Assembly (NCBI GenBank): GCA_003194525.1
Contig: NBIV01000331.1
Location: 1-64,000 of the forward strand
DNA length: 64,000 nt
Reading direction: 5' to 3'
From: Gracilariopsis chorda
Lineage: Eukaryota > Rhodophyta > Florideophyceae > Gracilariales > Gracilariaceae
The position numbers and the translations under genes were made by a program. Below the pieces are notes generated by a model. It saw only the letters and a program-made list of their open reading frames with translations. It ran no database searches and was not told the origin of the DNA. This document shows, piece by piece, positions 1,212 to 63,061 of this stretch (positions within the stretch are counted from its first letter, which is position 1; each line of letters starts with the position of its first letter).

Positions 1212-2539
1212 CTATAACATAGAAGTAATTGAGAGACCCAGAGCTTGACAATGACGATTGTGAACTTCTGTCGGCAGTCCTTTGGTCATAATGTCTGCGA
1301 ACAACAACGAACTGGGAAGATAGCTCAGTTGAACAGATTTCTTCTCAACATGGTCACGAACCAGGTGATACCAAACGTCAATGTGTTTCGTTCTCTCACT
1401 GCATAAGTTGTCATTCGATATGGCCAACATGCCCTGATTGTCTCCATGAATAACAGTACCCTCAGAATTGCCAATTCGTAGATCTTTCATTAGTTGTCGA
1501 AGCCAAATAAATTCACGGATGGCAAAAGCCATCGCCACATACTCAGATTTCACTGTTTGATTGTGCAAAAATCGATTGCTTCTTAGATCTCCATGAAATT
1601 GTTGCTCAAGAAAGGATAAATCCAAATCCACTTGTCGATTTGCGATCACATACATCACCAGCAAAATCCGCGTCACTATAGCCTACCAAAAGGCCATCTG
1701 TCTTCTTGTACACGAGTCCCATATACTTTGTACCCTTAAGATAACGAATTACTCTCTTTGCGGCCTTCCAATGGTCACTTCCGTACTTGTCCAAAAAGCA
1801 AGATAAATAACCAACAGCAAACGAGATGTCCGGTCTACAGGTGTTACTCAAATGCAATAACAATCCAATAATTTCACGATACGGGACATCAGTGCGTCGC
1901 TCATCAACGTCTGTAGCCAGAAGCTTTGTGCCGGGAACCATAGGAGTGGCAACAGGTATACAGTTCGCCATTCCAAAACTTTCAAGAGCATCCTCGATCA
2001 ATGGAGCATTATGAATCTTAATTGATCCGATAGCAGACTTTTCAATGACTAGTCCCAATAATTTGCTATCATCCGTTTCGATTCGAAGCTCGACATGCTT
2101 TGATAACTCTTTGACAACGTGTTGGACGTCCTTCTTGGTTTTTTTCAGCGATTAGAACATCATCGACGTACAGTATAAGCACAATCACCGTCTTGCTCTC
2201 ATCATGAAGTAGATACAGAGAAGGATCAGCAGAAGAGGCAACGGCACCAAGACTGAGCAGGATAGAGTGCAAGAATTTTCGGAACGCTCTAGATGCCTGC
2301 TTCAAGCCATAAATAGCTTTCTTCAGCCAATACACCAGATTTTCCTTGCTGCAAACTTCAAAACCACGGAGTTGCTCCATGTAGACTTCTTCTTCAAGTG
2401 TGCCATAGAGAAAAGCCGCGTTTATGTCCAATCCCATGTAGCACATAGACTGATCGACTATCATAGCCAACAACATCCGAACAGTGGTATACTTGGCTAC
2501 AGATGCAAAGACTTGAGAGTAATCTACACCATACTGCTG
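1212..2539 (-). pseudogene. Copia A reverse transcriptase (C-terminal part) and RNase H, frameshifted
   Basis: The frame ending near 2069 carries the Copia RT core with LDINAAFLYG, IYGLKQASRAFRKF and the catalytic LYVDDVLIA. A frameshift at an A run then leads into the RNase H half, with GLLLHLSNTCRPDISFAVGY, GYSDADFAGDVCDRKSTSG and, at the C-terminus, ADIMTKGLP. Two compensating one-base indels near 1556-1616 split RNase H into two frames here, whereas the duplicate at 58993-59838 reads through. RT residues upstream of 2539 are displaced to 14180-14452 by the Gypsy 1 insertion: the frame KGFMQ/QYGVDYSQVFA rejoins exactly across the TGCTG duplication. Confidence 0.9.
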
Positions 2540-3345
2540 TGTGGTGCAATGCCCCAAAGGGGAAAAACACCGAAAGACGTTCGGGATCTTCCTCTCACGA
2601 GGTGAACCCAGTTGGGTAGAGCCCTCCCAGAGGTGTCACGGCGAAGCCGGTTTGTAAGACCAGGGACACCTGTCGCGACTCGCGCAGGGAGGTGAAGGCG
2701 AAGAATCGGTATCCGCGTGAGCGGGTGTGATCCTCAGTAGAGGTATGTTTCCACGTAAGTGGGGGTGTGTGAGCGGATGCGCACACGAGGGCCGCGGATA
2801 GCGGGTGGTGCTACCCTAAAAAGGGGAAAAAGGAAGGGCGAAGTGGGTCGCGAGAGCGACGAACAGATACGGCAATGCCGGTGGACAGGACTCCCTATAC
2901 AGGTCGAAACACCAATATGATTGGAACAATTATACTCCCAAGGATGGGCTTCTTTAGATGTGCAAGGGGGTTAGATGTCCCGCGGTTTACGGCGTTTCCC
3001 TCCAAGGAGGAGTAGAGCACGCGCGCAAGCGGCAACAACTAGAGCCAATTCCCCAGGTTGGGGTCCCTTGTTGGGGAAGGTTTACTGGTGCGACGGCAGT
3101 GCACCGTCGCACTAAGTACTAGCTTCCCAGAAATGGGTGTGAAAATAATAAATAATATTAACTAAAATACTCCACATTTCGTGGCAACATCCACTACTGT
3201 GGCCAACCGCCAATTGACCCAAACCCGTGTCCCACGTGTCCATACCCACCATTGTGGGGCGTAGGTCATATACACACTACACAACCGATAATATCGGGAA
3301 AGCGTTCAAGTACCAAGAATCCCTCCCTGAGGGCGTTGCACTTCA
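2540..3345 (-). repeat. Gypsy 1 3' LTR
   Basis: An 806-bp terminal repeat matching 13383-14174 and 60320-61126. It contains many short stem-loops, the largest at 3088-3112 (9-bp arms GTGCGACGG/CCGTCGCAC around a 7-nt loop), and an A/T-rich stretch near 3140-3175. The plus-strand accessory gene starts only 56 bp beyond its inner edge. Read in the plus direction, the LTR is therefore the natural place for that gene's promoter, though no promoter motif proves it. Confidence 0.92.
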
Positions 3346-3357
3346 TATCCCCCCCCT
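3346..3357 (-). other. Gypsy 1 polypurine tract
   Basis: On the element's strand the bases directly inside the 3' LTR read TTAGGGGGGATA, a purine run in the exact place where plus-strand DNA synthesis of an LTR element is primed. The duplicate near 61127-61140 keeps it. Confidence 0.7.
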
Positions 3358-3401
3358 AAGACGGGAAAACGACCGCGGACGCGGAGGATTCCCAGACGAA
3401 A

Positions 3402-5093
3402 ATGGGTGATAAAAGCGCGTGCTCTGTCTCCGGTTCTCCGGTAAATCCCTCTGCACCAGAGTCATCGAGCGCACAAACAACAACAACAGCCACCCTCCAA
3501 AAGGGAAAAATGAACAACGACAACAATATCAACAACCACAGCCAACCTCCGAGACTTCTCGGGCGATACACCACCGGTTTCCGGTCAGTTCCCCTGCCTC
3601 AGGGCGATCAACATCCGGTACAACCCGGGAATATGGCTGCTGGAGCCGACCATCCCTTCGCACTACCACCTTCGGTGGTGTCCTCCGGAACCACTCCGGT
3701 GTCCAACTGGCCAACCTACAACACCCTGGTGGGGCTCAACCCGATGAATCGGAATCACGCGTCGCGCCTGCGCCTTGCCCCGTGGTTCCACCCGGTCGCT
3801 GTCCTCAATGAGGGATTGGTCACCGCTTATGCGGATGGCTCAGACACCCTTCCAGGGGATCTGCCCAGAGCGGTCACCACGTCGTGGGATTGGCGTCACC
3901 GGATTGCGATTCCGCGTCACCACCTCCGAAGAAATTCGGGCGAGACCGTCGCTGCGGCACAGACCGCGTTGACGCGCATGGCGTATCAACGGCAGAGCCG
4001 GGCTCCATTCGATGTACCGGTCCCACCGGAGTTTGGCTTCGACGTTAGCTACTTCCGCACTCGCGGGGAGATTGGGTACGGCGAGAACCTGTTCCGCCTC
4101 GAGACCCTCTCTTGGAAAAATTTCCCCGCAGCGCGGCAAGAAGCCCTTTGCTGGGAGCGAACGATTATTCGGGCGGAGTTCAGGTACCTTCCCCGGCAAT
4201 ACCGGTCCAACTTTCTCCAAAACTTCATCCGCTACGAGCGGCGTTGGCGATCCCGATTCGGGTATTTTATCCCGTATCAGAACGTGGAGATAGAGCGGAT
4301 TGCGCCGCCTCACCGACTAGGTCGGTATGTAGCACTCCCCGAGTGGTGGCGCTTCCATGAAGCCTGCCTGGGGTGCTACATAGAACTCCCGCCAGTCCTT
4401 ACGTACCTCGGTTCGCTGCTCATGCAGGATCCCCGGTCGGGGTTGTGGTCCGTAGTGGTTACGGAGTGGGCGGCCCGCAGTGCGGCTTATATCCTCAACG
4501 AGGCGTACGACCAGTATCGTCTCTGGTTCCTTCAACCGCGTGTGTGGGCAGCGATCCAAAACCTGGATCTTCGCATCCCCCTTGGGGGCCAGGCCAACAA
4601 TGAAGAGGTCCTCCAATTACTTGGGTACATCGACAGCGTTAGCTGGAGTGAGGTCCCGCTGGAGCAAAGCGGTCGTCTGGATGGCGGCAGCGGTAACACC
4701 GGTGGTCCGGGACTGGGTAGAAACACCGCCCTTGCGAGGGATTATATCTACTTCGACCCCTGGGAGTTCCGAGAAATTTCCTCCGAGGAGGCGCGCGAGC
4801 CTTGCGATACGCCCCGGCATGTGCCGGAAGACCACCCGGTGGGGTACGTTGATTCTGACGACTACTACCGCGCATACGGCGGAAATGACCCAATGGTCGA
4901 TAACGAACCGGAAGAACCCGGGGAGATGGACGTAGGGGAAACCGGCGCTAGCGCGGAAGCTTTCCCAGAGGGGGTATCTCCGGCCGAGCCGGCTGCTGAC
5001 CCTTCGGCGGCAAGTGCCGGACCTTCTATCCCCAGCAGGGTGACGGCGAATGAAAACGAAATCATCGCACGTTTCCTCCGGTGCCGGTCTTAG
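3402..5093 (+). CDS. Opposite-strand accessory protein of Gypsy 1 (unknown family), C-terminally truncated
   Basis: A 563-codon frame running against gag-pol, between pol and the 3' LTR. The ATG has A at -3 and G at +4. Residues 1-75 are Ser/Thr/Asn/Pro-rich. The middle (about 100-400) is folded-looking and rich in Trp, Tyr and Arg. It includes a PF-VP-VPP segment near 200, EWWRFHEAC near 314, PVLTYLGS near 331 and WSVVVTEWA near 348. The rest is acidic and Pro-rich. I see no signal peptide, membrane segment, zinc finger or known domain. A homologue lies in the same place in Gypsy 2 (31264-32712), which supports a real gene rather than an antisense shadow. A 2-base deletion near 5085 ends the frame early at CRS. 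The duplicate keeps about 35 further residues ending in DDGGE. The function is unknown. Additional sense or antisense ORFs between pol and the 3' LTR are known in some plant LTR elements. Confidence 0.75.
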   Translation: MGDKSACSVSGSPVNPSAPESSSAQTTTTATLQKGKMNNDNNINNHSQPPRLLGRYTTGFRSVPLPQGDQHPVQPGNMAAGADHPFALPPSVVSSGTTPVSNWPTYNTLVGLNPMNRNHASRLRLAPWFHPVAVLNEGLVTAYADGSDTLPGDLPRAVTTSWDWRHRIAIPRHHLRRNSGETVAAAQTALTRMAYQRQSRAPFDVPVPPEFGFDVSYFRTRGEIGYGENLFRLETLSWKNFPAARQEALCWERTIIRAEFRYLPRQYRSNFLQNFIRYERRWRSRFGYFIPYQNVEIERIAPPHRLGRYVALPEWWRFHEACLGCYIELPPVLTYLGSLLMQDPRSGLWSVVVTEWAARSAAYILNEAYDQYRLWFLQPRVWAAIQNLDLRIPLGGQANNEEVLQLLGYIDSVSWSEVPLEQSGRLDGGSGNTGGPGLGRNTALARDYIYFDPWEFREISSEEAREPCDTPRHVPEDHPVGYVDSDDYYRAYGGNDPMVDNEPEEPGEMDVGETGASAEAFPEGVSPAEPAADPSAASAGPSIPSRVTANENEIIARFLRCRS

Positions 5094-5378
5094 CGCTGCC
5101 GAGGTATCGGGGGATGTCACCACCATGGCGGACGCGTTGGCCTACCGCCTTGCTGGGGGTTACGCCCCGGACGATGGGGGTGAGTGAAACCTCTAGTCCA
5201 GTTTCCTGGTTCTTCTTTCCCTGGCTATGCCAGTTAGTGTAGTGTAGTATTGTGGGGAGCTAGCTGCTCCCTTGAATAAACTTTCCCGTTTAGAACGGTG
5301 CTTCTCGGTTGAGTTCCCCGTCTTCGACGGACCTTGCCTTTTTATCCCTTCCTTTCGCTCTCCGCTCGCGCGGCAACG

Positions 5379-7556
5379 TTACCCAACTTGGGCATTAACC
5401 AGCGTGGCTGGGGCTGCAGTTCCCGTTTGACGGTGGTATCGCAGGACCTGCGACCGTGGGAGGTGTTCAATTGGCTCCCACGTATCCCCACTGGGGTCGT
5501 ACCCGTACCAGCGGACGCGGTATTGTAGAATACCATCCTGGTCCCAGGTGTGTCCGACAAGTCGGTCTACTACGAACTCTCGTTCGTAGACCTGCCGGCC
5601 GTGCCGGGTGGTGGTTGTACTTCCTTGCGGAGGCTGCCCGCTGTGCGGTATAATGTCCCTTAGCAGGGTGTTCGGCGATAACTCCGGCGTTGCCGTGCGC
5701 TGTGATAGCGGCCGCTGCTCATGCGGGAAGATATCCCTCAAGAGGGTGTGTGGTGCCACGGTTTTCACCGGCAAGTCATTCCCCATTGGGGCAGGTTCAT
5801 TTCCGCTTTCGCGGTATTGCGGGCGAACTGCCAGTCGGCGGGGGACTTGGGCTCCGCCTTCGCGGTTGAGCTCACGAACCGCGAGTTTGCGGGAAGATGA
5901 CCGCTCCTGCGGGATCGGCATTTCCACAATCCCCTGGGGGGTCCCGTGCGACACGTTGATTGGGTGGCAAACCGCCTCCCTGCCAGGCGCACGAGCGCTC
6001 TGCACCATACGTTCCGGCGATGCCGTGGTGTCCCCGGCTACTGACGGGTTGCCTGGGGCTAACTCCGGTACACCGGTATTTTGGTCAAAATTCCCCTTTG
6101 GGGGGTGCCGGGCAGGTGCCGATGACACCCTTTTCAGGGGAATTGCCGCTAAGCGCGGTGCACCATCTCCATGAGGAAGAGCAGCGTCCGGTACGACCGG
6201 TCTCGAGCGTGCCATGGCGCGCGTTTTTCCCGAGTTCCTCGGTTCTTCGCCGCAGCGTTGCGGGGGTTGGCGCAAATTATTCCCCGTAGCGGGGGCTTCG
6301 ATTCCGTCAACGACGGGAGGCGTTTCCGGTGCTTGCGAGCCAGGGCTTAAAGCTTTGACTGCGGTTTGGCTGCCTTTTTCCCCAGGTTGGGTGTGGGGAT
6401 TTCCCAGCGGCGCTGGTGTATCTGGGCGCCTCTTCTCCGCAGGGCGCGGGTCTGATCGACCTGATTGAAACGCTTCCGTGGGGAATTCCGCCAACGGCGG
6501 CTTCGAGGCATCGCCCTGCTCAGGGGATTGGGGGCATTCGTCACCATACTCCCTTATCGGGGATCGTTCCCTGACACGGGTGTGCAGTAGTTGCGCTTCA
6601 ACTTCCCGTGTAGCACGGTATATTTTCCGCGTTTGTGGCGATGCCTCCGGGAATGGATCGGGCGATTGCCTTTCCGCTGCTGCGGTATTGGAGTGAGGCT
6701 TCTCGTTTTCCCGTGACAAACGGTGTATTTGCCGCTTTTGCGGGGCCTGCGCGTCTGGTTCCTGTTGCACAGCACTGCCCGGGAACGGGGGATTAGTGTC
6801 GCGTGACATACTCCGTGCTCCACGGTCAGTGTTCCGTATGTTACGGTGTGTTTCCCGTTGCGACGGCGATATCGTTCCTCTAAAACGAGTGTTCTCCTCC
6901 CCCTCCTTAGACGGAGCGGCGGGATAAGGGATAACATTCCCCGCCTGGCGGGTATAAATGCGCGCCAGTGGGGCAGACGTGGTAGGGGCGGGCGCTGAGA
7001 GGCCTGAATTACCCGGCTGAGCCGGTGAGTCCGACAGAGTCGGTAGGTCTGAGAGTCCCCTGCTGGGGTGTGGTAGTACCGTAGGTCTAGTACTCCCGGA
7101 TGGTTCCGGTGTTGCAGAGTCCGTAGAAACGGGGTTGCCTGGATCCAGGACTACCTCTGACGAGGGAGGAGGGGCAAGGACAACACGATCACGGGAAATC
7201 CGTTCGTGCGTGTCGCCCATCTCTACCACGACAGTGTCGGTGTTAACCGAGATGACCTTGAAGGGTCCATCCGCCACAGGCGAGAGTTTGTGACGCTTCT
7301 CCCGTTCCGGGTTGTAGTACTCCTTCCTGATGAAGACGTAGTTATTTGCCCGAATCGGGGGGGTCTTTCCTCGCAAGCGAGCGTCAAAATCCCGCTTGTA
7401 AGCGGCTTGGGCCCCTGCCATAGACTTCCGCGCAGCGGGGACCAGCTTGGAAAGCCATTGCTTCAATTGCTGCCGGTAGATACCCACAGATGGGAAATTG
7501 TCCAAGGTAGCTTGGGGTTCCAGCGCCACAGACGGGGGTGTTCTAGATAGAACCAA
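5379..7556 (-). CDS. Gypsy 1 Pol C-terminus: integrase C-terminal domain, low-complexity tail, chromodomain
   Basis: A 725-codon frame that is the 3' part of pol; its nominal start is an artefact of frameshifts upstream. Residues 1 to about 130 are the integrase C-terminal region (AYKRDFDARLRGK, then the SH3-like GPFKVISVNTDTVVVEM). About 150-640 is a Pro/Ser/Arg-rich tail with degenerate repeats of the pattern R(K/R)LAVRxxxRE and two NTLLRDI(F/I)PH copies. About 652-706 is a chromodomain: YEREFVVDRLVGH, then QYRVRWYGYDPSGDTWEP and IEHLP, with the aromatic cage positions Y and W present. Chromodomains at the end of integrase direct Ty3/Gypsy chromoviruses to marked chromatin in other organisms; that role here is inferred. 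The tail is far longer than usual, and its DNA is the densest hairpin region of the window. Confidence 0.85.
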   Translation of the reverse strand: MVLSRTPPSVALEPQATLDNFPSVGIYRQQLKQWLSKLVPAARKSMAGAQAAYKRDFDARLRGKTPPIRANNYVFIRKEYYNPEREKRHKLSPVADGPFKVISVNTDTVVVEMGDTHERISRDRVVLAPPPSSEVVLDPGNPVSTDSATPEPSGSTRPTVLPHPSRGLSDLPTLSDSPAQPGNSGLSAPAPTTSAPLARIYTRQAGNVIPYPAAPSKEGEENTRFRGTISPSQRETHRNIRNTDRGARSMSRDTNPPFPGSAVQQEPDAQAPQKRQIHRLSRENEKPHSNTAAAERQSPDPFPEASPQTRKIYRATREVEAQLLHTRVRERSPIREYGDECPQSPEQGDASKPPLAEFPTEAFQSGRSDPRPAEKRRPDTPAPLGNPHTQPGEKGSQTAVKALSPGSQAPETPPVVDGIEAPATGNNLRQPPQRCGEEPRNSGKTRAMARSRPVVPDAALPHGDGAPRLAAIPLKRVSSAPARHPPKGNFDQNTGVPELAPGNPSVAGDTTASPERMVQSARAPGREAVCHPINVSHGTPQGIVEMPIPQERSSSRKLAVRELNREGGAQVPRRLAVRPQYRESGNEPAPMGNDLPVKTVAPHTLLRDIFPHEQRPLSQRTATPELSPNTLLRDIIPHSGQPPQGSTTTTRHGRQVYEREFVVDRLVGHTWDQDGILQYRVRWYGYDPSGDTWEPIEHLPRSQVLRYHRQTGTAAPATLVNAQVG

Positions 7557-8072
7557 CTCGAATGGCGAAACTCCGGTAGTCCGGTGTACCTGCGTATAGT
7601 ACGCGTAGGTTACCGCATCAGCGTAGAGATCCCATTCGTTGGGTGGTCAGCGACGTAGGAACGTAACGCCGCGAGTAACGTCCGGTTAAACCGTTCAACT
7701 TGCCCATTACACTGGGGGGTGGTAAGTAGTCGTGAACAAGTTCTTGACATCCAGGATGCGACAAACACCCTGGAAGAACTTGCTCACGAACTGCTTCCCG
7801 TTGTCGGAGAGCACCTCCACAGGGGGACCGTAGACAAAAATCCAGTGCGTCACCAGAGCCTGGGCCACCGTGAGAGCGGTTATCCTCCGAAGAGGGACAG
7901 TCCGTACCAGCTTAGAAAAGCGGTCGGTGATGACAAGTAGGAACTTGTTTCCACGTTTTGTGGTGAGTAGTGGTCCGAGAAGATCAATTGCGATAAACTC
8001 GAGTGGCGCCCTTGCGGGGAATAGTTTCATCTTCTTCGCATTTTGCGGAGTTTGACGCGATTCTTCGCGCAT
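7557..8072 (-). pseudogene. Gypsy 1 integrase catalytic core, frameshifted
   Basis: The frame 7707-8072 contains the first two catalytic aspartates, in FIAIDLLGPL and VEVLSDNGKQFVSKFF. A one-base change in a C run (near 7720) then ends the frame at TYHPPV. In the next frame the sequence resumes with NGQVERFNRT, which holds the catalytic glutamate, and a second slip near 7635 restores the frame that continues as PFELVLSRTP. All three residues of the DDE triad are therefore present but in separate frames. The junction with the RT-bearing frame near 8030-8070 is also slipped. Confidence 0.85.
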
Positions 8073-10048
8073 TCGCTACAAAACCGCACAGTTGCGTAGC
8101 AATCCACCGCCATTGCGGGCCAATAGAAATCCCTTCGCAGGGTTAGGTAGAGTTTCCTCCCACCTGGGTGACCTCCAATGGGGGCGTAGTGTGATAGATG
8201 TAACACCCGCGATTGCAGGGAATGTGGTACCACAATCTGTGGGCGGGCTTCGACCTTCCTTACGAGGTAGCCTTTGTCGTTTACCCCGAAAGGGAGATCT
8301 TCACCACCGTTGATACGGGCACGAATTCTCGTACAGGATGGGTCGCCGAATTGTTCTCGGATCATTTCTTCCGGTGATACCGGTACAAAGTTTCCCGGTA
8401 ACGGGTTCTCAGATTTATCTCGCGATGCGAGTAGTTCGTCAAAATCAGCATCCTCGTCCCAGGTTTCTGGCCTAGCCTCGACGGCATGTTCCGGATCATC
8501 CGAATCTATAGCCATGAAGCATGGGACTTCATCATCCTCCGTTGGGAGTGCTTCCCCACTTGTGGGTAACCGCGATAAAGCGTCGGCCTGAGTGTTCTGC
8601 GCGCCCTTTTTATAAATGACTTGAAAGTCATATTCCGCGAGGCGGAGTCTCCAGCGCATGAGGCGTCCCGACGGGTCGGAGATATTCATCAACCACCTCA
8701 ATGAGGAATGATCCGTGTACACGGTGAATTGAATTCCCATAAGGTAGGGGCGCAGAGTGGTCATCGCCCATACGACGGCGAGGCACTCTTTCTCCGATAC
8801 GGAGTAGTTCCGCTCATGAAAATTGAGCGAGCGCGACCAATAACCAATTGGATGTCGTTCCCCCTCGGGGGTGGTTTGAAAAAGAGCACACCCGACTTGG
8901 TAGTCGCTCGAGTCCGTATCTACGGAGTATGGCAACCCAAGTTTTGGGAGATGTAGGATTGGTGCTGATGTGACAGCCTCCTTTAAGGAGTTGAAGGCTT
9001 CCGATTGCTCGGGCGTAAATGTTCCCAGTTTTGGGGGGCTCCCCTTTCGCAACAACGCGTTCAGGGGCGCCGCAGTATCCGAAAAGTTCGGGATAAACCG
9101 TCGATAGACGTTGACCAGCCCCAGAAAGGAGCGCAGTTCCGTTTTAGTACGGGGTTCTTTCGCCTCAACGAGGGATTTGACTCGAGCTCTCTCGATCGCT
9201 AACCGTCCAGGACGGATAATGTGACCCAGATACTTCACAGTATCTGTGAAAAACTCGCATTTCCTCAACTTGAGGGTAATTCTCGCATCGCGGAGTACGG
9301 TCAGCACGTCTCGGAAGTGAGTGAGATGGTCGTCCAACGAGTTGGAGAAGATGATAATATCATCAAGGTAGACCAGACAACTCCGCCACTTAAAGCGGCT
9401 GAGCAGAATATCTACTGCACGCTGAAAGGTGGCGGGGGCGTTGGTTAACTCAAATGGCATCCGCTTGAAGCGGTACGTTCCTGCATGGCAGGTGAATGCG
9501 GTTTTGTCGCGATCCTCCTGTCTGACAGGTACTTGCCAATATCCCCAATTGGCATCGAGAGCCTTGAACACGGTGGCGTCTCCCAGGGAGTCAATGAACT
9601 CGTCCATACGAGGGATGGGGTACGTGTCCCTAACAGTCACGGAATTGAGCCGGCGGTAGTCGACACAGAACCTCCAGGTTCCGTCGGCCTTTAAATCCAG
9701 TACAACTGGGGATGCCCAGGGTGATTGAGCGGGCTCAATCACACCTGCGCGGAGCATCTTGTCCACTTGGGACTGCTCCTCTTCCCGAGCTTTCGGACCT
9801 GCCCTGTAAGGGGGTCGTGCAACCGGTCGCGCACCGGGGATTAAATCGATCCGGTGTTCCGTTGCGTTAATCTCGCCAAGCGAGCCATCCCACATTGTGG
9901 TGAATTCCCGTAACATGGTACGGAGTTTGTCGCGGTGCGACTCTGGCACGTGGCTAAAGTCCAGCGCTTCAAGTGCTTTTTCCGGATCAATCCGGTCGTC
10001 GCTCGATGGAGCATTGTCCTGTGGAACAGGTGTGGTTCGCAATTCCAA
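8027..10048 (-). CDS. Gypsy 1 reverse transcriptase, RNase H and integrase zinc domain
   Basis: A 673-codon frame. RT motifs run in order: WASPVVLDLKADGTWRFCVD, YRRLNSVTV, the first catalytic Asp in KALDANWGYWQV, RMPFELTNAPATFQ, and YLDD in SCLVYLDDIIIF near residue 227. The connection domain is VKYLGHIIRPGRL. RNase H follows with Asp in YSVDTDSSDYQVG, Glu in SEKECLAVVWA, Asp in VYTDHSSLRWL, and NTQADALSR. The end holds the integrase zinc-binding module with HxxxxxxGGH and CSEC. This is a complete-looking polymerase. The nominal start is a non-ATG codon, and the frame was fused to the protease upstream until a slip near 10090. In GFELTN the usual Gly of PFGLxNAP is Glu, which may impair activity. 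Confidence 0.93.
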   Translation of the reverse strand: MELRTTPVPQDNAPSSDDRIDPEKALEALDFSHVPESHRDKLRTMLREFTTMWDGSLGEINATEHRIDLIPGARPVARPPYRAGPKAREEEQSQVDKMLRAGVIEPAQSPWASPVVLDLKADGTWRFCVDYRRLNSVTVRDTYPIPRMDEFIDSLGDATVFKALDANWGYWQVPVRQEDRDKTAFTCHAGTYRFKRMPFELTNAPATFQRAVDILLSRFKWRSCLVYLDDIIIFSNSLDDHLTHFRDVLTVLRDARITLKLRKCEFFTDTVKYLGHIIRPGRLAIERARVKSLVEAKEPRTKTELRSFLGLVNVYRRFIPNFSDTAAPLNALLRKGSPPKLGTFTPEQSEAFNSLKEAVTSAPILHLPKLGLPYSVDTDSSDYQVGCALFQTTPEGERHPIGYWSRSLNFHERNYSVSEKECLAVVWAMTTLRPYLMGIQFTVYTDHSSLRWLMNISDPSGRLMRWRLRLAEYDFQVIYKKGAQNTQADALSRLPTSGEALPTEDDEVPCFMAIDSDDPEHAVEARPETWDEDADFDELLASRDKSENPLPGNFVPVSPEEMIREQFGDPSCTRIRARINGGEDLPFGVNDKGYLVRKVEARPQIVVPHSLQSRVLHLSHYAPIGGHPGGRKLYLTLRRDFYWPAMAVDCYATVRFCSECAKNRVKLRKMRRR

Positions 10049-11085
10049 GTTACTCGGTATGTTCGACGCTGAAGTAGCGGTTTCCTCCCCTCCTTAGACT
10101 TGACGTCTTCGGACGGCGGGGCGAACTCCTCAGAAGAGGTGGTAACTCCGAGTACATCGGAGGCTGTCATCTTTGTTGGCAGCATTCCCATAGGATGGGG
10201 GGTTACACTCCCAATTACTTGGTGTTTGACCAGATACTGGGGGTGTTTGCCAAGATTGGCAACCAATATCCGGAAAGGGACATCCGGGGAAATGGAGACA
10301 ATTCCATTAGCCAGCGCCAGCTGGGATTTCTCGTACAACGAGGCGAGGGGTTGTATAACCCGAAGACCGTGTTGACGGGAATTTACCTGCACTCAGACTT
10401 GGGACTCAGCCGGTATAGAAACCGAGGCAGCGACGCGGAGCTTGGTGGGCTCGCGGGACGCGGGCGGTGGTTCCTGCGCAGCAGGGAGCGGAACTTGTTT
10501 CCGAGAGGACCGCTTTAGCGGGCGGCGAACAATCGGAACCGACGATCTGTCGTCAAGTTCTACACGCCTGAGGCGGGGCCTGATTGCGTCGACAAATCTG
10601 TCGCAGTAATCACATCCCAGTATGACTGGTGCTGCCAATGAACGGCAAACGATGAATTCCAACTTCACCACAGAGGTACCAAGTCTCACGACGAGGTCCA
10701 CTGTGCCCACCGTTTGTAACGGATTGTTGTTCGCATCCGAAATGTCAGGGACCGCGTCAGAGCGGATACGCGACCGCACAAGCGGGGGTAACAATGATTC
10801 CACAACAAAGTTGGGGCCTGCAACTGTATCCAGGACGGTGAGAAACCTCACCATAAACTGGGGGTCAAGGCCAAGGTCGGCATAGACCTTATAATTGCGT
10901 TTGGCCAAGACCAAGACTCTACCGGGAATCCGGGGATTTTTACTCCGTATCCACGGGCGACGCAACACACCGAGGTGCGCAGAGTCTGCGTCAGCGGTGT
11001 CTTTCCTCGAGAGGACTTTCACCGGGGAGCGAGGCGAGGACGCCTCGGGTGCCAACAGCCTCGTTCTTGAGGACGCCTCTCCCAA
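10049..11085 (-). pseudogene. Gypsy 1 aspartic protease and protease-RT linker
   Basis: The frame 10393-11085 holds a retropepsin-like domain: FMVRFLTVLDTVAGPNFVVE, then KLEFIVCRSLAAPVILGCDY. The active-site triplet is DTV instead of DTG/DSG. The homologous protease of Gypsy 2 reads VLDTGAGPNLV, so the Val is a derived change likely to abolish cleavage. The frame 9841-10392 continues as the linker seen upstream of RT in this lineage (SLYEKSQLALANGIVSI, FRILVANLGKHPQYL). A slip in a G-rich run near 10085-10100 separates it from RT. Confidence 0.75.
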
Positions 11086-11294
11086 AGGGGGGACTCTCTC
11101 AGTTAATTTTCCGCCTTCGGCGGTGGTTTGGTTTCCTCGACAACGAGTGCTTCATTTCGTTGACGGGGGTTTCTATCCGCATAAGCGGGGGTTGCAACGG
11201 ATGGTTGCGTGATCTCCCGAATCGGGGTGTATGAAGCTTGCAGCGCACGCGGGGTCTGTGGTAGGGCGTGGGAAAAGTCCGTTTTAGCACGGAG

Positions 11295-13277
11295 TTAGGA
11301 AGCCGTCGGGACGGAACGTTTCTCCTCTGGAGTGAGGGCCTCATAATTTGCCACCACTTTGGCCATATCCTTCAGTGAACCAATACACTGAGGGAAGGTA
11401 TGGCCATGGGCATAGCACAGGTGGCAAATGAGAGCCAATACCGCGACACGCGGATTATTATTCCGAGTATCGGAGAAGCGAACTGCAGGGCGGGTGTCAG
11501 TCCATCCAGGCCGTTGATAACGGGATTGACAGTTTGAAAACGGGAGTCGTTGGGGTTGCACACGACTGTTACCACTGTACAAAACGAGGTCTTCCGTTCC
11601 CGTATCACGGGTCATCTCCGTCGTTGAAGGCAAATCACTGGTGGGTATCAACACACCATCCCCCTGCACTAAATGCACGGTATCAAATCCCTGTCCAGGG
11701 TTCCCATCCGCGGTGAACGGGAGAGAGGAAGCTTCGCTTTCCAACAACAACGCCTTGGCGGATTTAGAGCGATTGTTCGGAGTTCTTGCACGAAGTGCAT
11801 CCCCTTCCGCTCGGGCGTGTTGGACCAGCTCGAGGTAGGTGATCCTCCGCTTGTCCTCCCGATAACGGGTAACTGAACTCCGGATTGCCGGGTCAAGACC
11901 ATCAATGAACATGGTACTGCGCTCCCCAGCGGGGTATACGTTACCACATCTGTGGAAAGCCTTGTTAAGGCGCACCGAGTAATCGGTCTCGGTCTCTCCA
12001 GCACGCTGGCGTGTATCTCGCAAAGCGAGGATAGCCTGCTGAATAGCGGTGTTGGTGGCGTAGGAGCGCAGAAGATACTGCACAGCCTCCGGCCAGCAAG
12101 TAACTCCTCCCTCGGAGGCGCGAGAAGATCCTCTGACAGAGGTGTATTGGTCCTCCGCCACTCCCCGTAAGAAATACGGTAAAGCCAAATAGGCTTGTCC
12201 CTCATTCATACCGAGGATATCGGCCTCCGCTACAAAGCGGGATAGGAAATCCAGTACTAGGACTGGGTCCTCTCCAGTAAAATACTGGTTGCGGAGCGAG
12301 AGCTGCATTCGCTTAATGCATTCTCGCACCTTTCCCGTACCACGGGGCGTACGTCCAAGTGACGAGTCTTCGAGCCGGTAGTACCGGTATGATAAAAGCT
12401 TCCGGTAGTCCGGGTTTGTCGGTTTCAATTCCCGGAGACCGGGGTGTCTTCTCCCTTTCTGGTGGGTTCGGACCACACCTTCAGTGGCCGATGACCGCCT
12501 CGAGCGGGAGGAGTAGCCTCGCTTCTCGTCCTCCGAGTCGGAGTCCGAGGAGCTCGAGCTAACCGAATGGTTTCGGGATGAGTCCGACGATGTCGAAGAA
12601 TCGGAGTCCGAATATTTTCGGTGGTGTTTCCGTCGATGACGGCGTTTCTTCTTCCCAGCAAGCTGGTCGTTGTGCGATGCCTCGTTTACCGGATCATCCG
12701 GGGATGGTTTGTCCATGAGGACGAACTGCTCCAGCGTCTCCAGGCGGGCACCAATCCGATCAAATCGGGCTTCAACTCCTTCGATGAAGGTGGCGGGTTG
12801 TCCCAAACTCTCCAACACGGAGTTGACGTCAGACCGTAAAATACGGAGTTCCTCGGCAACCCCCTTTACGGGGGTTGCCGAGACCACCTCTTGGAGGGAT
12901 TTTAGTTCCCCTACAAGGGTGTCATGGGCGGTCCACAGAGCGCGGACCTGGGATTCCAGGGAACTCCCCTGGGGGTTGTTATCGCCCGTTCCACGGGGGC
13001 TTGAAGCCGCGACAGCGGGAGCAGGCCGGGGTGCCTGGGGCACTGCGACAACAGCCGGAGTCGATGCTGCATTCCCCTGCGGGGGTGATAACGAGGGCAA
13101 AAGGAGGTTCCGGGGTTCCCGGTCGGGGGTATCATTCCGCAATGAAGCGGCGCCAGTACGGCTGGAACTTGTCCGTATAGGGATACGGGGTACGACCCGA
13201 ACTTCGGATGTGTCCACGTTGTCGCGGGAGCGAATACGCGTAACCACTGGCTCCGCATCGGAGGGATTTCTCGACAT
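11295..13277 (-). CDS. Gypsy 1 Gag
   Basis: A 660-codon frame starting at an ATG about 90 bp inside the PBS. The N-terminus is Ser/Pro-rich, with a helical stretch (SLESQVRALWTAHDTLVGEL). Next comes a basic run (KKRRHRRKHHRK) followed by an Ser/Asp-rich tract, about residues 205-260. Then comes the retrotransposon-gag capsid region (VLDFLSRFVAEADILGMNEG, YLALPYFLRGVAEDQY, SYATNTAIQQAILALRDTRQ, and FIDGLDPAIRSSV). Near the C-terminus is one CCHC zinc knuckle, CHLCYAHGHTFPQC (CX2CX4HX4C). Gag assembles the cytoplasmic particle that packages element RNA. The frame is intact. Confidence 0.9.
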   Translation of the reverse strand: MSRNPSDAEPVVTRIRSRDNVDTSEVRVVPRIPIRTSSSRTGAASLRNDTPDREPRNLLLPSLSPPQGNAASTPAVVAVPQAPRPAPAVAASSPRGTGDNNPQGSSLESQVRALWTAHDTLVGELKSLQEVVSATPVKGVAEELRILRSDVNSVLESLGQPATFIEGVEARFDRIGARLETLEQFVLMDKPSPDDPVNEASHNDQLAGKKKRRHRRKHHRKYSDSDSSTSSDSSRNHSVSSSSSDSDSEDEKRGYSSRSRRSSATEGVVRTHQKGRRHPGLRELKPTNPDYRKLLSYRYYRLEDSSLGRTPRGTGKVRECIKRMQLSLRNQYFTGEDPVLVLDFLSRFVAEADILGMNEGQAYLALPYFLRGVAEDQYTSVRGSSRASEGGVTCWPEAVQYLLRSYATNTAIQQAILALRDTRQRAGETETDYSVRLNKAFHRCGNVYPAGERSTMFIDGLDPAIRSSVTRYREDKRRITYLELVQHARAEGDALRARTPNNRSKSAKALLLESEASSLPFTADGNPGQGFDTVHLVQGDGVLIPTSDLPSTTEMTRDTGTEDLVLYSGNSRVQPQRLPFSNCQSRYQRPGWTDTRPAVRFSDTRNNNPRVAVLALICHLCYAHGHTFPQCIGSLKDMAKVVANYEALTPEEKRSVPTAS

Positions 13278-13366
13278 GAGAAAATACCGTTACGACGGGA
13301 AACGATCACGGAACTTCCGGTCAATAAAAACAAACCTCGTTAGAGGGAAAACAAAAACCGATTCTA

Positions 13367-13379
13367 GGTCGGGAGACCA
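13367..13379 (-). other. Gypsy 1 primer-binding site
   Basis: Immediately inside the 5' LTR the element strand reads TGGTCTCCCGACC, starting with the TGG expected to pair with a tRNA 3' CCA. It is itself a hairpin (GGTC/GACC). I cannot name the tRNA without a tRNA set for this genome. Confidence 0.6.
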
Positions 13380-13382
13380 CTT

Positions 13383-14174
13383 TGTGGTGCAATGCCCCAA
13401 AGGGGAAAAACACCAAAAGACGTTCGGGATCTTCCTCTCACGAGGTGAACCCAGTTGGGTAGAGCCCTCCTAGAGGTGTCACGGCGAAGCCGGTTTGTAA
13501 GACCAAAGACACCTGTCGCGACTCGCGCAGGGAGGTGAAGGCGAAGAATCGGTATCCGCGTGAGCGGGGTGTGATCCTCAGTAGAGGTATGTTTCCACGT
13601 AAGTGGGGGTGTGTGAGCGGATGCGCACACGAGGGCCGCGGATAGCAGGTGGTGCTACCCTAAAAAGGGGAAGAAGGAAGGGCGAAGTGGGTCGCGAGAG
13701 CGACGAACAGATACGGCAATGCCGGTGGACAGGACTCCCTATACAGGTCGAAACACCAATATGATTGGAACAATTATACTCCCAAGGATGGGCTTCTTTA
13801 GATGTGCAAGGGGGTTAGATGTCCCGCGGTTTACGGCGTTTCCCTCCAAGGAGGAGTAGAGCACGCGCGCAAGCGGCAACAACTAGAGCCAATTCCCCAG
13901 GTTGGGGTCCCTTGTTGGGGAAGGTTTACTGGTGCGACGGCAGTGCACCGTCGCACTAAGTACTAGCTTCCCAGAAATGGGTGTGAAAATAATAAATAAT
14001 ATTAACTAAAATACTCCACATTTCGTGGCAACATCCACTACTTTGACCCAAAAACGTGTCCCACGTGTCCATATCCACCATAGTGGGGCGTAGTTCATAT
14101 ACACACTACACAACCGATAATATCGGGAAAGCGTTCAAGTACCAAGAATCCCTCCCTGAGGGCGTTGCACTTCA
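13383..14174 (-). repeat. Gypsy 1 5' LTR
   Basis: A 792-bp repeat of 2540-3345. It lacks the short stretch GGCCAACCGCCAAT present near 3200 and in the duplicate near 60980. Otherwise only scattered substitutions separate the two LTRs. Confidence 0.92.
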
Positions 14175-14179
14175 TGCTG

Positions 14180-34247: not shown

Positions 34248-35836
34248 GTCCTCGCTTGCGCCAATACCGCACTACAAAGTTGCGCGGGATATGAATAGGT
34301 GGTTATAACCTGTCTGACTCGGAGGACCATCTGTACCACCTTAAAAGGTATCGAATACCTCGAATGGTGTGCTCATGACCAACAGTGGTTTCAGTTGCAC
34401 ACTCCGTGGTTACCGGTGGGTGAGATTTCGCGAACAGATCTCCAGAGGTCTGGTCTGCTTGTACCGACTTTGGTGGAGGTATCACTACGGGGCCAAGGTT
34501 AGTAAGGTCGCTCTTAACCGCAGGTTCCCAGAGCGGGGACGCGTCAAGTTGTACCACAGGTGAGTTAATGGGTGAGCCTTTTCTCGATGCAGTCTGGGAA
34601 CTTGCAGGTTTCCCGACCACTGGTTGTGCCGCCGTCAGTTCTTCAACGGGCCTCGGGGCCTTTGTCACTCAATCGAACGAAATGGTATTTTCCAACCCGT
34701 CCATCAGTACCGTAACGGTATGAGCGTCTGCTCGAATCGCCTTGTAAGGTCCAGTAGCCCTAGGGAGAAGTTCAGAATTGATGTGCGCATCAATGCTAAT
34801 GTCTTCCTTCTCCTCTGCTGGCGTGGGCCTCTGGTCATCAGGTGGAAGGTCGATAAAGATATATTCCCCTGTAACCACTTTGGTGATGTGTAGTACCTTC
34901 CGGTCATAGTCCTTCTTGTACCGCTGTTGGGCCTTCGTGGTTCTGGCTCTTGCATGACGCAGGGCCGCACGCAACCTTCTAAGGATGTATTTCTTGACCT
35001 GTGCAAGAGTAGTTCCACCTGGAGGGTTACCTTTTACAGGCTAGGTCTCAGGTACAATCGCTTGAGGTGCACGCCACAATACCAAATCGAATGGTGTGGT
35101 CTGCGTACCCCGGTGGACCTGCAGGTTATACGCGTACGTTAATGGTTGAACGTACTCGCCCCAATCAGTTTGGTGTTCCTCCACGTAATGTCGCAGTCTT
35201 TCCACGAGGGTCTTATTGTACCGTTCCACTTGACCATTGGTCTGGGGGTGGTAAGCGGTAGTGAAGTGGTGTTTCACACCCAGCATGGTACAGACGGCTT
35301 CGAAGAACTTCGATGCAAGGTTCGAACCGTTATCGGTAAGCAATTAGAGCGGAGCAACCTAGAGGTATATCCAGTTGTTAAGGAACGTCTTGGCCAATGT
35401 GGTCGATTTTGTATCCCTCAGAGGTATCGCGCAGGTCAACTTCGAACACTTATCGGTGATTACAAGTACGTACTTATTTATAACCCTTGTTGCTCTTTGG
35501 AAGTGACCCTAACAGGTCGATCGCAATAACTTCCAACGTACTCGCTGCGGGGAAAAGCTTCAGGTACTTCCTGTGCTTTTGCAAACCACCTCTGGTCCTC
35601 ACGCATGATGCACACTGACCTACGAAGGTATACACATCGTGTGCCACATTGGGCCATTAAACGTTCCTCCTTAGATTATAGTATAACCGAGTGGCTCCTG
35701 GATGACGTGCAAGGCGAGGGTAATGCGAGAAGTGCAAAACCCTGGACCGTAGGGATTCTGGAACGACCTTTTGGAGGGACCCATCCAGGGGCGATCGTCT
35801 CACCAAATAACCATTGTGGTCGTTGTTGAACTGTGA
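34248..35836 (-). pseudogene. Gypsy 2 integrase and chromodomain, disrupted
   Basis: 35041-35343 reads LTDNGSNLASKFFEAV (second catalytic Asp), FTTAYHPQTNGQVERYNKTL (catalytic Glu) and PFDLVLWRAP. 34669-34974 reads QQRYKKDYDRKV and GPYKAIRADAHTVTVLMDG (C-terminal domain). 34303-34668 ends in a chromodomain remnant, HTIRGIRYLLRWYRW, aligned with HTWDQDGILQYRVRWYGY of Gypsy 1. A TAA replaces the following TWEP segment. The tail between integrase and chromodomain is much shorter than in Gypsy 1. The zinc module near 35560-35830 is only faintly visible. Confidence 0.82.
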
Positions 35837-37449
35837 TCAAGATATCCCGATGTGGTCCGACAAGCTTGTGTAGTACTTGTACTTGGCTTGACCTTCTAGG
35901 AATTTCTCTCGGGTGATTGGAGCGTTCATTTGTCCATCCTGGTCAGCGACCAAAATTGGTGACTTTCCCCCTGAGAGTTCTGGTTCCGTATCTACAACTA
36001 TACCTGTGAAGGTTTCATCACCCATTGCTCCGCTCCTACAGATGTTGAAACAGGGATTTTGTCCTCAACCTCTTCGGTCTCTAACCCATTGGTGCTAAGG
36101 CGCGACATAGCGTCAGCCACGTTGTGCTTTATACCTGGAAGGTACTGGACATCGTATTTGAATCCCAGTAGGCGGAGTCTCCATCCGGCCAGCCATCCGC
36201 AGGCGTCCGCCAGTTCGAGTATCCACCTAAGGGCATCGTGATCTGTTCTTATTGTAAACTTAACACCATATAGGTACGGGCGAAGCATGAGCATGCTCCA
36301 AACTACTGCAAAGCACTCTTTGTTGGTCACGGTGTAGTTTTGCTCTGTGTGGGACAGGGCTCTACTCCAATAACCAACTGGTAACTTATCCCAGTTGTCT
36401 TGCTTCTGAATGAGGCAGAAACTAATTTGGGCGTCCGAGGAATCGGTAACGAGGGTGTAGGGTAGACCGCTTTTGGGTAATGCCAATATTGGTGGATGGA
36501 GAAGGGCAGCTTTCAGCTGTTGTCAGGCTTCCACTTCTTCGACCTCTAGGTAATGGAAACGATCTGGTTGACCTTTCATGAGTCTTCGGTTCAGGGATAC
36601 CGCAATTTTTGGGAACCCCTTGATGAACCTACGGTACACATTGCAAAGATCTATAAAGGAACGGATATCCGTCTTGGAGGTAGGAATACGTGCCTCCTGT
36701 ACCGCACGGATATTCCTCTTGGTGACCTCCAACCTTCCAGGTCTTATAGTGTGTCCCAAGTACTCCACCTTTTGGTCAAAGAAGGTACATTTCCTCAATT
36801 TGAGGGAAATGCCGGCCTCCATTAGGAGTCTCAGTACTGTACCAACATGGTCAAAGTGTTCTTCTACCGTTCGGGAGTAGATGATTACGTCATATAAGTA
36901 TACCAAAGCGGTGGTCCATTTAACCTTAGATAGGATAATGTCCAGCGCTCGCTGAAACGAGGCTGGCGCATTCTTCAGACCAAATGGCATTCGGAGAAAC
37001 CTGAATAGGCCAGCCTGACAAGTAAAAGTGGTCTTGTCTCTGTCCTCTTCAGGTATTTCCATTTTCCAATAACGACTGTTGGCATCCAATGTGGTAAACA
37101 TTTTCGCATCCCCTAGGATATCAATGCACTTGTCCATTTGTCGTATTGGGTAAGAATCTCGCACCGTAACGGTATTTAGTTTTCGATATTCTACACAGAA
37201 CTGCATACGGATATCACCTCTTTTTTGGACAAGGACCACTAGGCTCGCCCACTCCGCATTTGCGGGTTCGATTACCCCCTCACGGAGCATGCACCCCACC
37301 TCCTGTAGCTCTACCTCACGGGCCTTGGGACCAGCTCGGTAGGGGTGTTGTTGGATGGGCCTCGCACCGTGTACGAGATCGATCTGGTGCTTGGCGGCCT
37401 TGGTAACTCCGAGGCGCCCTGAACACATGGTGCAAAACGGATCTAGCAT
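35837..37449 (-). pseudogene. Gypsy 2 reverse transcriptase and RNase H
   Basis: 36523-37449 is RT: HPYRAGPKAREVELQEV, FCVEYRKLNTVTVRDSYP, TTLDANSRYWKMEIPEEDRD and RMPFGLKNAPASFQRALD. The active site is altered to YLYD (ALVYLYDVIIYS), losing the first Asp of YxDD. 35998-36486 is RNase H with TLVTDSSDAQIS, NKECFAVVWSM, IRTDHDALRWIL and NVADAMSRL. A slip separates the two. Compared with Gypsy 1 RT it keeps the normal FGLKN but has lost a metal-binding residue. Confidence 0.88.
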
Positions 37450-37631
37450 ATCGAGAACCTTCTCCCTAAGGGTCTCATCTTCGATACCAATATGGACTTC
37501 TTCCTTCCATTCTAGTGGTTAATCTTCACCCTCATGGCCTTTTACGTCTGTCTTCTTGTTCTTATTTCCACTTTCATAGTCCAAGACTTCATCTTTTTTC
37601 CGTCCATGGTCTTCATCTTCTTCCTTCTGCT

Positions 37632-60319: not shown

Positions 60320-61126
60320 TGTGGTGCAATGCTCCAAAGGGGAAAAACACCGAAAGACGTTCGGGATCTTCCTCTCACGAGGTGAACCCAGTTGGGTAGA
60401 GCCCTCCCAGAGGTGTCACGGCGAAGCCGGTTTGTAAGACCAGGGACACCTGTCGCGACTCGCGCAGGGAGGTGAAGGCGAAGAATCGGTATCCACGTGA
60501 GCGGGGTGTGATCCTCAGTAGAGGTATGTTTCCACGTAAGTGGGGGTGTGTGAGCGGATGCGCACGCGAGGGCCGCGGATAGCGGGAGGTGCTACCCTAA
60601 AAAGGGGAAGAAGGAAGGGCGAAGTGGGTCGCGAGAGCGACGAACAGATACGGCAATGCCGGTGGACAGGACTCCCTATACAGGGCAAAACACCAATATG
60701 ATTGGAACAATTATACTCCCAAGGATGGGCTTCTTTAGATGTGCAAGGGGGTTAGATGTCCCGTGGTTTACGGCGTTTCCCTCCAAGGAGGAGTAGAGCA
60801 CGCGCGCAAGCGGCAACAACTAGAGCCAATTCCCCAGGTTGGGGTCCGTTGTTGGGGAAGGTTTCCTGGTGCGACGGCAGTGCGCCGTCGCACTAAGTAC
60901 TAGCTTCCAAGAAATGGGTGTGAAAATAATAAATAATATTAACTAAAATACTCCACATTTCGTGGCAACATCCACTACTGTGGCCAACCGCCAATTGACC
61001 CAAAACTGTGTCCCACGTGTCCATATCCACCAAAGTGGGGCGTAGTTCATATACACACTACACAACCGATAATATCGGGAAAGCGTTCAAGTACCAAGAA
61101 TCCCTCCCTGAGGGCGTTGCACTTCA
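60320..61126 (-). repeat. Gypsy 1 3' LTR, duplicated copy
   Basis: About 807 bp, matching 2540-3345 including the 14-16 bp missing from 13383-14174. The large hairpin near 60868-60893 keeps its 9-bp stem, with one change in the loop. Confidence 0.92.
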
Positions 61127-61181
61127 TATCCCCCCCTAAGACGGGAAAACGACCGCAGACGCGGAGGATTCCCAGACGAAA

Positions 61182-62870: not shown

Positions 62871-63061
62871 AACCTCTGGTCCAGTTTCCTGGTTCTTCTT
62901 TCCCTGGCTATGCCAGTTAGTGTAGTGTAGTATTGTGGGGAGCTAGCTGCTCCCTTGAATTAACTTTCCCGTTTAGAACGGTGCTTCTTGGTTGAGTTCC
63001 CCGTCTTCGACGGACCTTGCCTTGTTATCCCTTCCTTTCGCTCTCCGCTCGCGCGGCAACG

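What the first reader, a model, noticed from the sequence alone, without database searches (positions are those of the whole stretch)
2540..14174. Gypsy 1 is saturated with short perfect hairpins, even inside coding sequence
Seen: stem-loops of the form CC-NN(N)-loop 1-7-(N)NN-GG recur every 25-40 bp. Examples: CCGTCTTCGACGG, CGCAGGACCTGCG, CCGACAAGTCGG, CCCTCAAGAGGG, CCGCTTTCGCGG and CCGCCTTCGCGG (5300-5860), and inside RT CTCCGATACGGAG, CCCCCTCGGGGG, CCGTATCTACGG, CCCAAGTTTTGGG and CTCCTTTAAGGAG (8640-9010). Many share flanks TTCC...GGTG or GGTAT. Around 8640-9040 I count about 9 uninterrupted stems of 5 or more with loops of 7 or less. A uniform random 400 bp would give about 3. The polarity is strongly CC-first rather than GG-first, and stems vary while staying complementary. 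I know of no described element with such a feature. It could shape RNA packaging, resist silencing, or reflect a mutational or copying mechanism that writes local inverted repeats.
Basis: partly seen in the sequence, partly recalled or inferred. Interest (0 to 1): 0.88.

Follow-up and report, generated by a model that had tools for sequence, protein, structure and literature searches.

The report
Retrotransposon built of regular RNA hairpins
A jumping element in a red seaweed carries hundreds of tiny hairpins about every 20 letters along its whole length, genes included, and changes that break them are rarely passed on among its copies, so the folding itself seems to matter to the element.

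Summary
The Ty3/Gypsy chromovirus at 2540-14174 has 225 matches to CC(N)7-9GG with >=4 perfect pairs, against 17.9+-4.2 in shuffles; GG-first ones are not enriched (23 v 17.9). The excess stops at the element's ends, survives codon-preserving shuffles, recurs in a second copy at 60.3-64 kb, and is absent from the rest of the window. Pairing stops where the loop would fall below 3 nt. Hairpins sit on a local ~20-21-nt lattice whose register is kept between families. Singleton mutations hit stems as often as other sites, but variants shared by >=3 copies avoid stems (5 in 1100 stem sites v 49 in 2108 others): selection, not a copying error. Compensatory changes are modest. A 73%-identical relative is also saturated, without CC bias; two 51-53% relatives are not, or barely. 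Host: Gracilariopsis chorda (inferred). Best guess: the RNA is a regular string of micro-hairpins, each docking an element protein such as Gag nucleocapsid. An RNAi shield or a cDNA role is not excluded; the acting strand is unresolved. Listings of ten paper searches showed no description.

The parts
2540..14174 (-). Ty3/Gypsy chromovirus with the hairpin array along its whole length (399 non-overlapping hairpins of >=4 pairs by one count; 259 CC-first by another)
   Evidence: genomic-RNA sense is the minus strand (PBS-like site, polypurine tract, pol)
2535..2539 (.). target-site duplication TGCTG, left copy
   Evidence: sequence
14175..14179 (.). target-site duplication TGCTG, right copy
   Evidence: sequence
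2540..3345 (-). 3' LTR (left), hairpin-dense
   Evidence: 24 helices counted across six family members
13383..14174 (-). 5' LTR (right), hairpin-dense
13367..13379 (-). primer-binding-site-like stretch (sense TGGTCTCCCGACC) 3 nt inside the 5' LTR
   Evidence: tRNA not sought
3346..3357 (-). polypurine tract next to the 3' LTR
   Evidence: sequence
11295..13277 (-). gag ORF with one CX2CX4HX4C zinc knuckle (no Pfam match); 41 CC-hairpins v 3.9 in synonymous shuffles
10393..11085 (-). ORF in the protease position (named by position, no Pfam match); 7 CC-hairpins v 1.2
8027..10048 (-). pol ORF: RT, RNase H, integrase H2C2; 34 CC-hairpins v 5.1
5379..7556 (-). integrase C-terminal/chromodomain ORF (separate frame in this copy); 51 CC-hairpins v 7.2
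3402..5093 (+). conserved 563-aa gene on the strand opposite to pol; 30 CC-hairpins v 5.3
60320..64000 (-). second copy of the same element (about 98% identical in the two long blocks), cut by the window end; 78 CC-hairpins v 6.9 in 60301-64000
35567..37476 (-). negative control: another Gypsy, 51% identical in RT over 483 aa, 3 CC-hairpins (0.9+-0.9 expected)

Best explanation
The element's nucleic acid is maintained by selection as a quasi-regular string of micro-hairpins (mostly 4-5 bp with a 3-4-nt loop, about 12 nt, spaced about every 20-21 nt where slots are filled) from LTR to LTR, with a family-specific clamp (CC:GG at the base in this family). Most likely they act in the genomic RNA as an array of docking sites for an element-encoded protein, best candidate the Gag nucleocapsid (single zinc knuckle), so that the ~11-kb RNA is condensed, marked as self and packaged by a regular nucleoprotein array. 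Shown: the array, its rule, the local lattice, the selection. Inferred: that RNA is the acting molecule, and that Gag binds it.
For: Excess over dinucleotide and codon-preserving shuffles. Physical folding: at spans 11-13 the paired fraction of the inner pair is 57/80, 90/121 and 62/78 where the loop stays >=3, and drops to 14/57, 25/90 and 14/78 where it would be 1-2. Lattice: pairs of hairpins at 18-24 nt 78 (52.5+-5.5 in a hard-core null), 27-33 nt 19 (39.1+-5.9), 38-44 nt 51 (40.3+-5.3), 47-53 nt 24 (40.7+-5.6); in G1 also 56 at 121-127 v 35 at 130-136 (null 40); register kept between families, with +-21-nt side peaks even against a 72%-identical family. Selection: in 21 copies x 1.42 kb and 21 copies x 2 kb, singletons are 147 in 1100 stem sites and 254 in 2108 other sites, but variants shared by >=3 copies are 5 v 49; Fisher on shared v singleton p=2e-5 (RT piece alone 0.025, gag piece alone 0.0009). 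The clamp is sequence-specific without gain in stability: the same stems with GG..CC would be 0.5 kcal/mol more stable (n=74), which suggests recognition by a protein. The clamp changes with the family: CC here, C-first in L011, none in L030, as expected if it tracks an element protein; zinc-knuckle residues of G1, L011 and L030 differ too. Weak strand signal for sense RNA: the base next to the stem is A rather than T on the sense strand, 218:106 v 328:271 beside non-hairpin CC/GG, p=2.6e-4 in G1, and G-U flanks that would extend the helix are scarcer than A-C ones (p=0.046, pooled G1, L022, L011).
Against: No binding data. G-U wobble is not tolerated more on the sense than on the antisense strand (excess 261 G-T v 288 A-C, five loci). 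Folding energies do not differ between strands over 561 windows of six loci (p=0.24; L030 alone leans to sense, p=0.028), nor do hairpin energies with flanks (p 0.05-0.77 in four loci). A linker-shuffle strand test was inconsistent: G1 favoured sense (p=0.003), L027, L022 and L030 gave nothing. The flank A bias is not significant on its own in L022 and L011 against the CC/GG control (p=0.09, 0.26), and AA v TT flanks reach only p=0.057. Variants shared by exactly two copies are not depleted in stems (23 in 1100 v 36 in 2108). Compensatory change is modest: 74/844 v 298/5754 changed pairs, OR 1.76. Against L011 the stems of CC-hairpins are hardly more conserved than the rest in the two longer blocks. 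In Ty1, Ty3 and HIV-1, packaging is placed in the structured 5' end (PMC11381356, section 29), not in the whole length.
Confidence: 0.42

Rival explanations
1. RNAi shield: the hairpins make every ~21-nt stretch of the element's transcripts partly double-stranded, so that small RNAs loaded in Argonaute cannot pair with it; the spacing matches small-RNA length.
For: The period (~20-21 nt) is close to a usual small-RNA length (recalled); the host has two full Piwi-domain matches; both strands carry genes and hairpins, and no strand preference is needed.
Against: Does not explain why CC-first and not GG-first stems are in excess, since GG-first ones would be more stable. Long hairpin-free gaps are not much rarer than chance (7 gaps >60 nt v 9.8+-2.5).
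Confidence: 0.2
2. The hairpins act in single-stranded cDNA during reverse transcription (compaction, protection, or ordered second-strand synthesis) rather than in RNA.
For: No extra G-T tolerance on either strand; the array covers everything that is copied, including both LTRs.
Against: The flanking-A asymmetry points, weakly, to the sense strand, whereas the long-lived single-stranded cDNA is antisense.
Confidence: 0.14
3. A host-sensor evasion or stability role like genome-scale ordered RNA structure of persistent RNA viruses, without a dedicated binding protein.
For: Folding energy is shifted along the whole element (mean z -1.22 over 96 windows; 0.01 in window 14.3-26 kb; -0.34 in the other Gypsy); GORS lowers recognition of viral RNA (abstract of PMC3950689).
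Against: A strict 11-13-nt span, short stems, a lattice and a CC clamp are more than bulk structure needs.
Confidence: 0.13
4. Mutational origin: template switching of the reverse transcriptase on its own product keeps writing and repairing local inverted repeats.
For: Would also need a loop of >=3 nt and would act on all of the element (reasoning, no call).
Against: Predicts stems changing at the neutral rate by paired changes; instead stems are conserved (L022 0.094 v loops 0.292) and shared variants are rare in stems although singletons are not. Predicts no outer CC rule, no cap on stem length and no lattice.
Confidence: 0.05
5. Double-stranded DNA palindromes: binding sites or cruciforms in chromatin.
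For: Period near two turns of B-DNA (recalled value).
Against: A dimeric site would not need complementarity of varied inner bases nor stop pairing at a 3-nt loop; edges coincide with the element.
Confidence: 0.04

Closest known systems
[quoted passage not shown]
   Same: Structure along the whole genome, in excess of shuffles, overlaid on coding sequence
   Different: Here: micro-hairpins of fixed size, a CC:GG clamp and a ~20-21-nt lattice, in an LTR retrotransposon; GORS as I recall it has no such unit or period
Dispersed packaging-signal hairpins of some RNA viruses (recalled, no call)
   Same: Many hairpins sharing a minimal motif spread over coding RNA
   Different: Hundreds instead of tens, near-regular spacing, motif in the stem base rather than the loop (no loop consensus); binding not shown
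Ty3 and Ty1 genomic RNA structure (PMC11381356, abstract and section 29 read)
   Same: LTR-retrotransposon genomic RNA with structured parts
   Different: Those are mosaic, with stable structure in up to 30% of the RNA and packaging signals at the 5' end; here the array is continuous
Chromodomain-bearing Ty3/Gypsy elements (chromoviruses)
   Same: RT, RNase H, integrase H2C2, chromodomain, LTRs
   Different: Hairpin lattice and a conserved gene on the opposite strand
Mobile GC clusters / double-hairpin elements of organelle genomes (recalled)
   Same: Many small hairpins scattered through a genome
   Different: Those are inserted copies of one sequence; here stems and loops vary, and positions lie in aligned reading frames

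Membership tests
Ty3/Gypsy chromovirus | RT, RNase H and integrase in Gypsy order | tested here: met
   RVT_1, RT_RNaseH, Integrase_H2C2 in one ORF; the integrase catalytic core was not among the Pfam matches of the six ORFs scanned in this copy
Ty3/Gypsy chromovirus | Chromodomain at the integrase C-terminus | tested here: met
   PF00385 E=2.7e-10 in the downstream ORF, a separate frame in this copy
Ty3/Gypsy chromovirus | LTRs with target-site duplication | tested here: met
   LTRs 2540-3345 and 13383-14174, TGCTG duplicated
Ty3/Gypsy chromovirus | Primer-binding site complementary to a host tRNA | tested here: inconclusive
   TGG-starting site 3 nt from the LTR; no tRNA search was made
GORS | Folding energy below shuffles along the whole genome | tested here: met
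   mean z -1.22+-0.15 over 96 windows; control stretch 0.01
GORS | Genome of a positive-strand RNA virus | tested here: not met
   LTR retrotransposon
GORS | Lowers recognition by host defences | not testable with these tools
   needs cells
Packaging-signal array | Many hairpins with a common recognition motif | tested here: met
   CC(N)7-9GG with paired interior
Packaging-signal array | Binding by the element's own capsid or nucleocapsid | not testable with these tools
   no binding data
Quasi-palindrome template-switch signature | Stems change at the neutral rate through paired changes | tested here: not met
Mobile hairpin repeats (GC clusters, double-hairpin elements) | Copies share sequence and insert as units | tested here: not met
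   shared sequence: loops diverse; positions kept between aligned families; insertion as units was not examined further

The most novel reading that the evidence does not exclude
A lineage of red-algal retroelements carries a genome-length assembly code: its RNA is a quasi-crystalline chain of micro-hairpins, one slot per ~20-21 nt, each a docking unit for one copy of an element protein, with a clamp sequence that changes between families and so separates 'self' from rival elements.
Probability: 0.33. Interest if true: 0.95.

Novelty: new variant of a known kind. Interest (0 to 1): 0.86.

Why it matters
I know of no retroelement with so regular a selected fold along its whole length, and the listings of ten searches showed none; it is written into genes on both strands at once. 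Because copies are numerous and young, selection on stems can be read directly from which mutations are shared between copies. It offers a natural system to ask how a capsid protein recognises and counts along its genome, how far synonymous sites can be bent by structure, and whether structure can protect a transposon from silencing.

Tried and rejected
Strand by wobble: a first count suggested G-T excess on the plus strand; with controls (CC..GG at spans 17-23, GT 39: AC 17; GG..CC 34: 15) it vanished. In one search the keys GT, AC and WC were counted twice for one order; corrected by hand the G1 numbers are WC 208, GT 34, AC 21, other 68. With CC fixed (first half) the AC class is inflated by outer-pair mismatches, so only the unrestricted half is used. 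Strand by folding energy and by linker shuffling gave no consistent answer. The mutation spectrum among L001-L008 was looked at for asymmetry only.

Tetraloop codes: no loop consensus, GNRA about 7% of 4-nt loops in G1 and in L027/L022/L014. Global phase coherence: the lattice fades beyond roughly 150 nt, so one helical register along the element is not supported; L014 and L022 showed weaker or shifted periods at longer lags, and L022 has the opposite of G1 at 121-136 nt. The generic score profile shows only a shallow peak at +-20.

Relatives elsewhere: two scans of viral contigs and one of genome contigs found none; a second genome-contig scan found two loci. Structure prediction of the plus-strand gene product was poor (mean pLDDT 38.1), so no fold search was made.

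Literature: only listings were seen for most papers; abstract plus section 29 of PMC11381356 and the abstract of PMC3950689 were read. The ten searches were made; the library lacks most subscription papers, and no paper on the Gracilariopsis chorda genome itself came up.
Full report
What is there. Window 2540-14174 is a Ty3/Gypsy chromovirus with both ends (TSD TGCTG; LTRs 2540-3345 and 13383-14174; a PBS-like site and a polypurine tract that put the genomic-RNA sense on the minus strand). Pfam finds RT, RNase H, integrase H2C2 and, in a downstream ORF, a chromodomain; gag has one zinc knuckle. This copy is split over several frames, while a number of the 90 listed copies have open frames of about 1,875 aa or more around RT. 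A 563-aa gene lies on the opposite strand (3402-5093): five relatives were found in the protein database (38-58% identity; one named Gracilariopsis chorda, one Gracilaria domingensis, three without a name), and third codon positions change most (0.180/0.139/0.417 against the divergent L014 family).

Host. The best named RT hit is from the red alga Agarophyton chilense (69%). P0122, named Gracilariopsis chorda, lies on a contig of 445,473 bases, exactly the length of G000 contig C30. I infer that the genome is Gracilariopsis chorda.

The hairpins. Perfect stems are in 3.3-fold excess (173 v 52.4+-4.8). The stem-by-loop table peaks at 4 bp/4 nt and 5 bp/3 nt, with little beyond 6 bp. The rule is CC at the 5' foot and GG at the 3' foot, 11-13 nt in all: 225 v 17.9+-4.2, against 23 v 17.9 for GG-first. 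In 1-kb steps the density is 14-26 per kb in the eleven full kilobases from 3 to 14 kb, 0-2 in the kilobases that hold no part of the element or its second copy, and high again from 60 kb. Synonymous shuffling within each of five ORFs leaves it unexplained, and another Gypsy in the same window (51% identical in RT) lacks it (3 v 0.9+-0.9).

They are folded things. Given CC..GG and the outer pairs, at spans 11-13 the next pair is complementary in 71-79% of cases while the loop stays at 3 or 4, and in 18-28% when it would shrink to 1-2. This is the minimum loop of a real hairpin. A swap of the clamp to GG..CC would be more stable (-4.42 v -3.92 kcal/mol, n=74), so CC is not there for stability.

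They form a lattice. Centre distances of CC-hairpins pile up near 21, 42 and 63 nt and are scarce near 30 and 48; against a hard-core random null the counts at 18-24, 27-33, 38-44 and 47-53 nt are 78, 19, 51, 24 (expected 52.5, 39.1, 40.3, 40.7), while 59-65 v 68-74 (47 v 38) is weak. L027, L022 and L014 show the same first two peaks. The order is local and fades beyond roughly 150 nt. Empty slots tend to hold weaker hairpins (shallow signal).

They are under selection. Between families aligned by BLAST, stems of CC-hairpins differ less than loops in 17 of 18 blocks (the exception is a 98.3%-identical W60k block, stem 0.013, loop 0.000), e.g. L022 0.094 v 0.292, L014 0.033 v 0.231; the two longer L011 blocks show little difference (0.277 v 0.319; 0.252 v 0.316). 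Hairpin centres coincide: 84 v 14.7 expected for the long L022 block; 59 v 15.6 summed over four L011 blocks. Most telling for selection rather than low mutation: in 21 copies of a 1.42-kb RT piece and 21 copies of a 2-kb gag/protease piece (G1 plus 20 each; none dropped; columns with a gap skipped), singletons fall equally on stems (60+87 in 472+628 sites) and elsewhere (127+127 in 950+1158), but variants shared by three or more copies are 3+2 in stems and 25+24 elsewhere (odds ratio 0.18, p=2e-5). A site was called stem if at least 40% of copies keep it, so stem-breaking variants of very high frequency would be missed. An earlier labelling of the RT piece (60%) gave 1 v 25, with 2 more in unlabelled sites. 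Variants shared by exactly two copies show no such depletion (12+11 in stems, 13+23 elsewhere), which weakens the contrast.

Compensatory change. Over all hairpins and five comparisons (L014 split into two identity classes; right-LTR, W60k and short blocks left out), 74 of 844 changed stem pairs are paired double changes, against 298 of 5754 changed control pairs (OR 1.76, p=8e-5; blocks overlap and are not independent). In the LTR, across six members, 8 pairs have changes on both sides v 3.8+-1.4 in shuffles (2 of 500), and the covariation score is 0.108 v 0.075 (0 of 500), while the number of further pair types is not raised (23 v 21.9); the structure was drawn from the same rows, which favours it.

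Who else has it. Of 20 ten-kb samples of the genome, 4 are dense (70-132 CC-hairpins) and 16 are not (2-11). The four contain relatives of this element. A contig in a Robiginitomaculum MAG (L030; 73% over 92 aa of RT; gag and pol; probably algal contamination, inferred) has 54 stems v 18.7+-4.3, holds under synonymous shuffles (31 v 14.5; 21 v 6.9) and favours the same sizes, but has no CC preference. L011 prefers C-first. L029 (Moorena MAG, 53%) has no excess of generic hairpins (15.5 v 15.5 per kb), though 57 v 40.0+-5.8 long stems. So saturation seems to mark one lineage and the clamp a later, family-level feature; two loci outside the genome are few.

Which strand. Unresolved. No wobble, energy or linker-shuffle test is consistent. 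The main strand-specific signal is A next to the stem on the sense strand (G1 218 A: 106 T, v 328: 271 beside non-hairpin CC/GG, p=2.6e-4; weaker in L022 and L011).

How it may work. The array, the rule, the lattice and selection are shown; that RNA acts and that Gag binds is inferred. A protein is suggested because the clamp is sequence-specific without gain in stability and drifts with the family. The RNAi shield fits the period but not the clamp. Template switching is contradicted by the shared-versus-singleton test.

Noticed in passing
G000 contigs C483, C648, C777, C944, C317, C345, C882 and others: Besides two full Piwi-domain matches, 44 partial ones occur (46 matches in all, one below the cut-off), in places every ~8 kb and as opposed-strand pairs about 200 bp apart: a repeat unit carrying inverted Argonaute pieces, which could make hairpin RNA against host Argonaute.
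   Followed up: no
window 3402-5093: A conserved gene on the strand opposite to pol, 38-58% identical to five database proteins (one from the same species, one from Gracilaria domingensis, three unnamed), no Pfam family; predicted structure poor.
   Followed up: partly
G000 C70:248649, 258569, 268479 and C3:100001, 108814, 117625: Copies repeat at constant spacing (about 9.9 kb and 8.8 kb), as in tandem arrays.
   Followed up: no
window 2501-2539 and 60281-60319: The similarity between the two copies in the window begins upstream of the LTR (the query began at 2501), so they may share a flanking repeat or a duplication.
   Followed up: no
L029: Nine hairpins with an 8-bp stem and 3-nt loop where none is expected: possibly a repeat of its own.
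   Followed up: no
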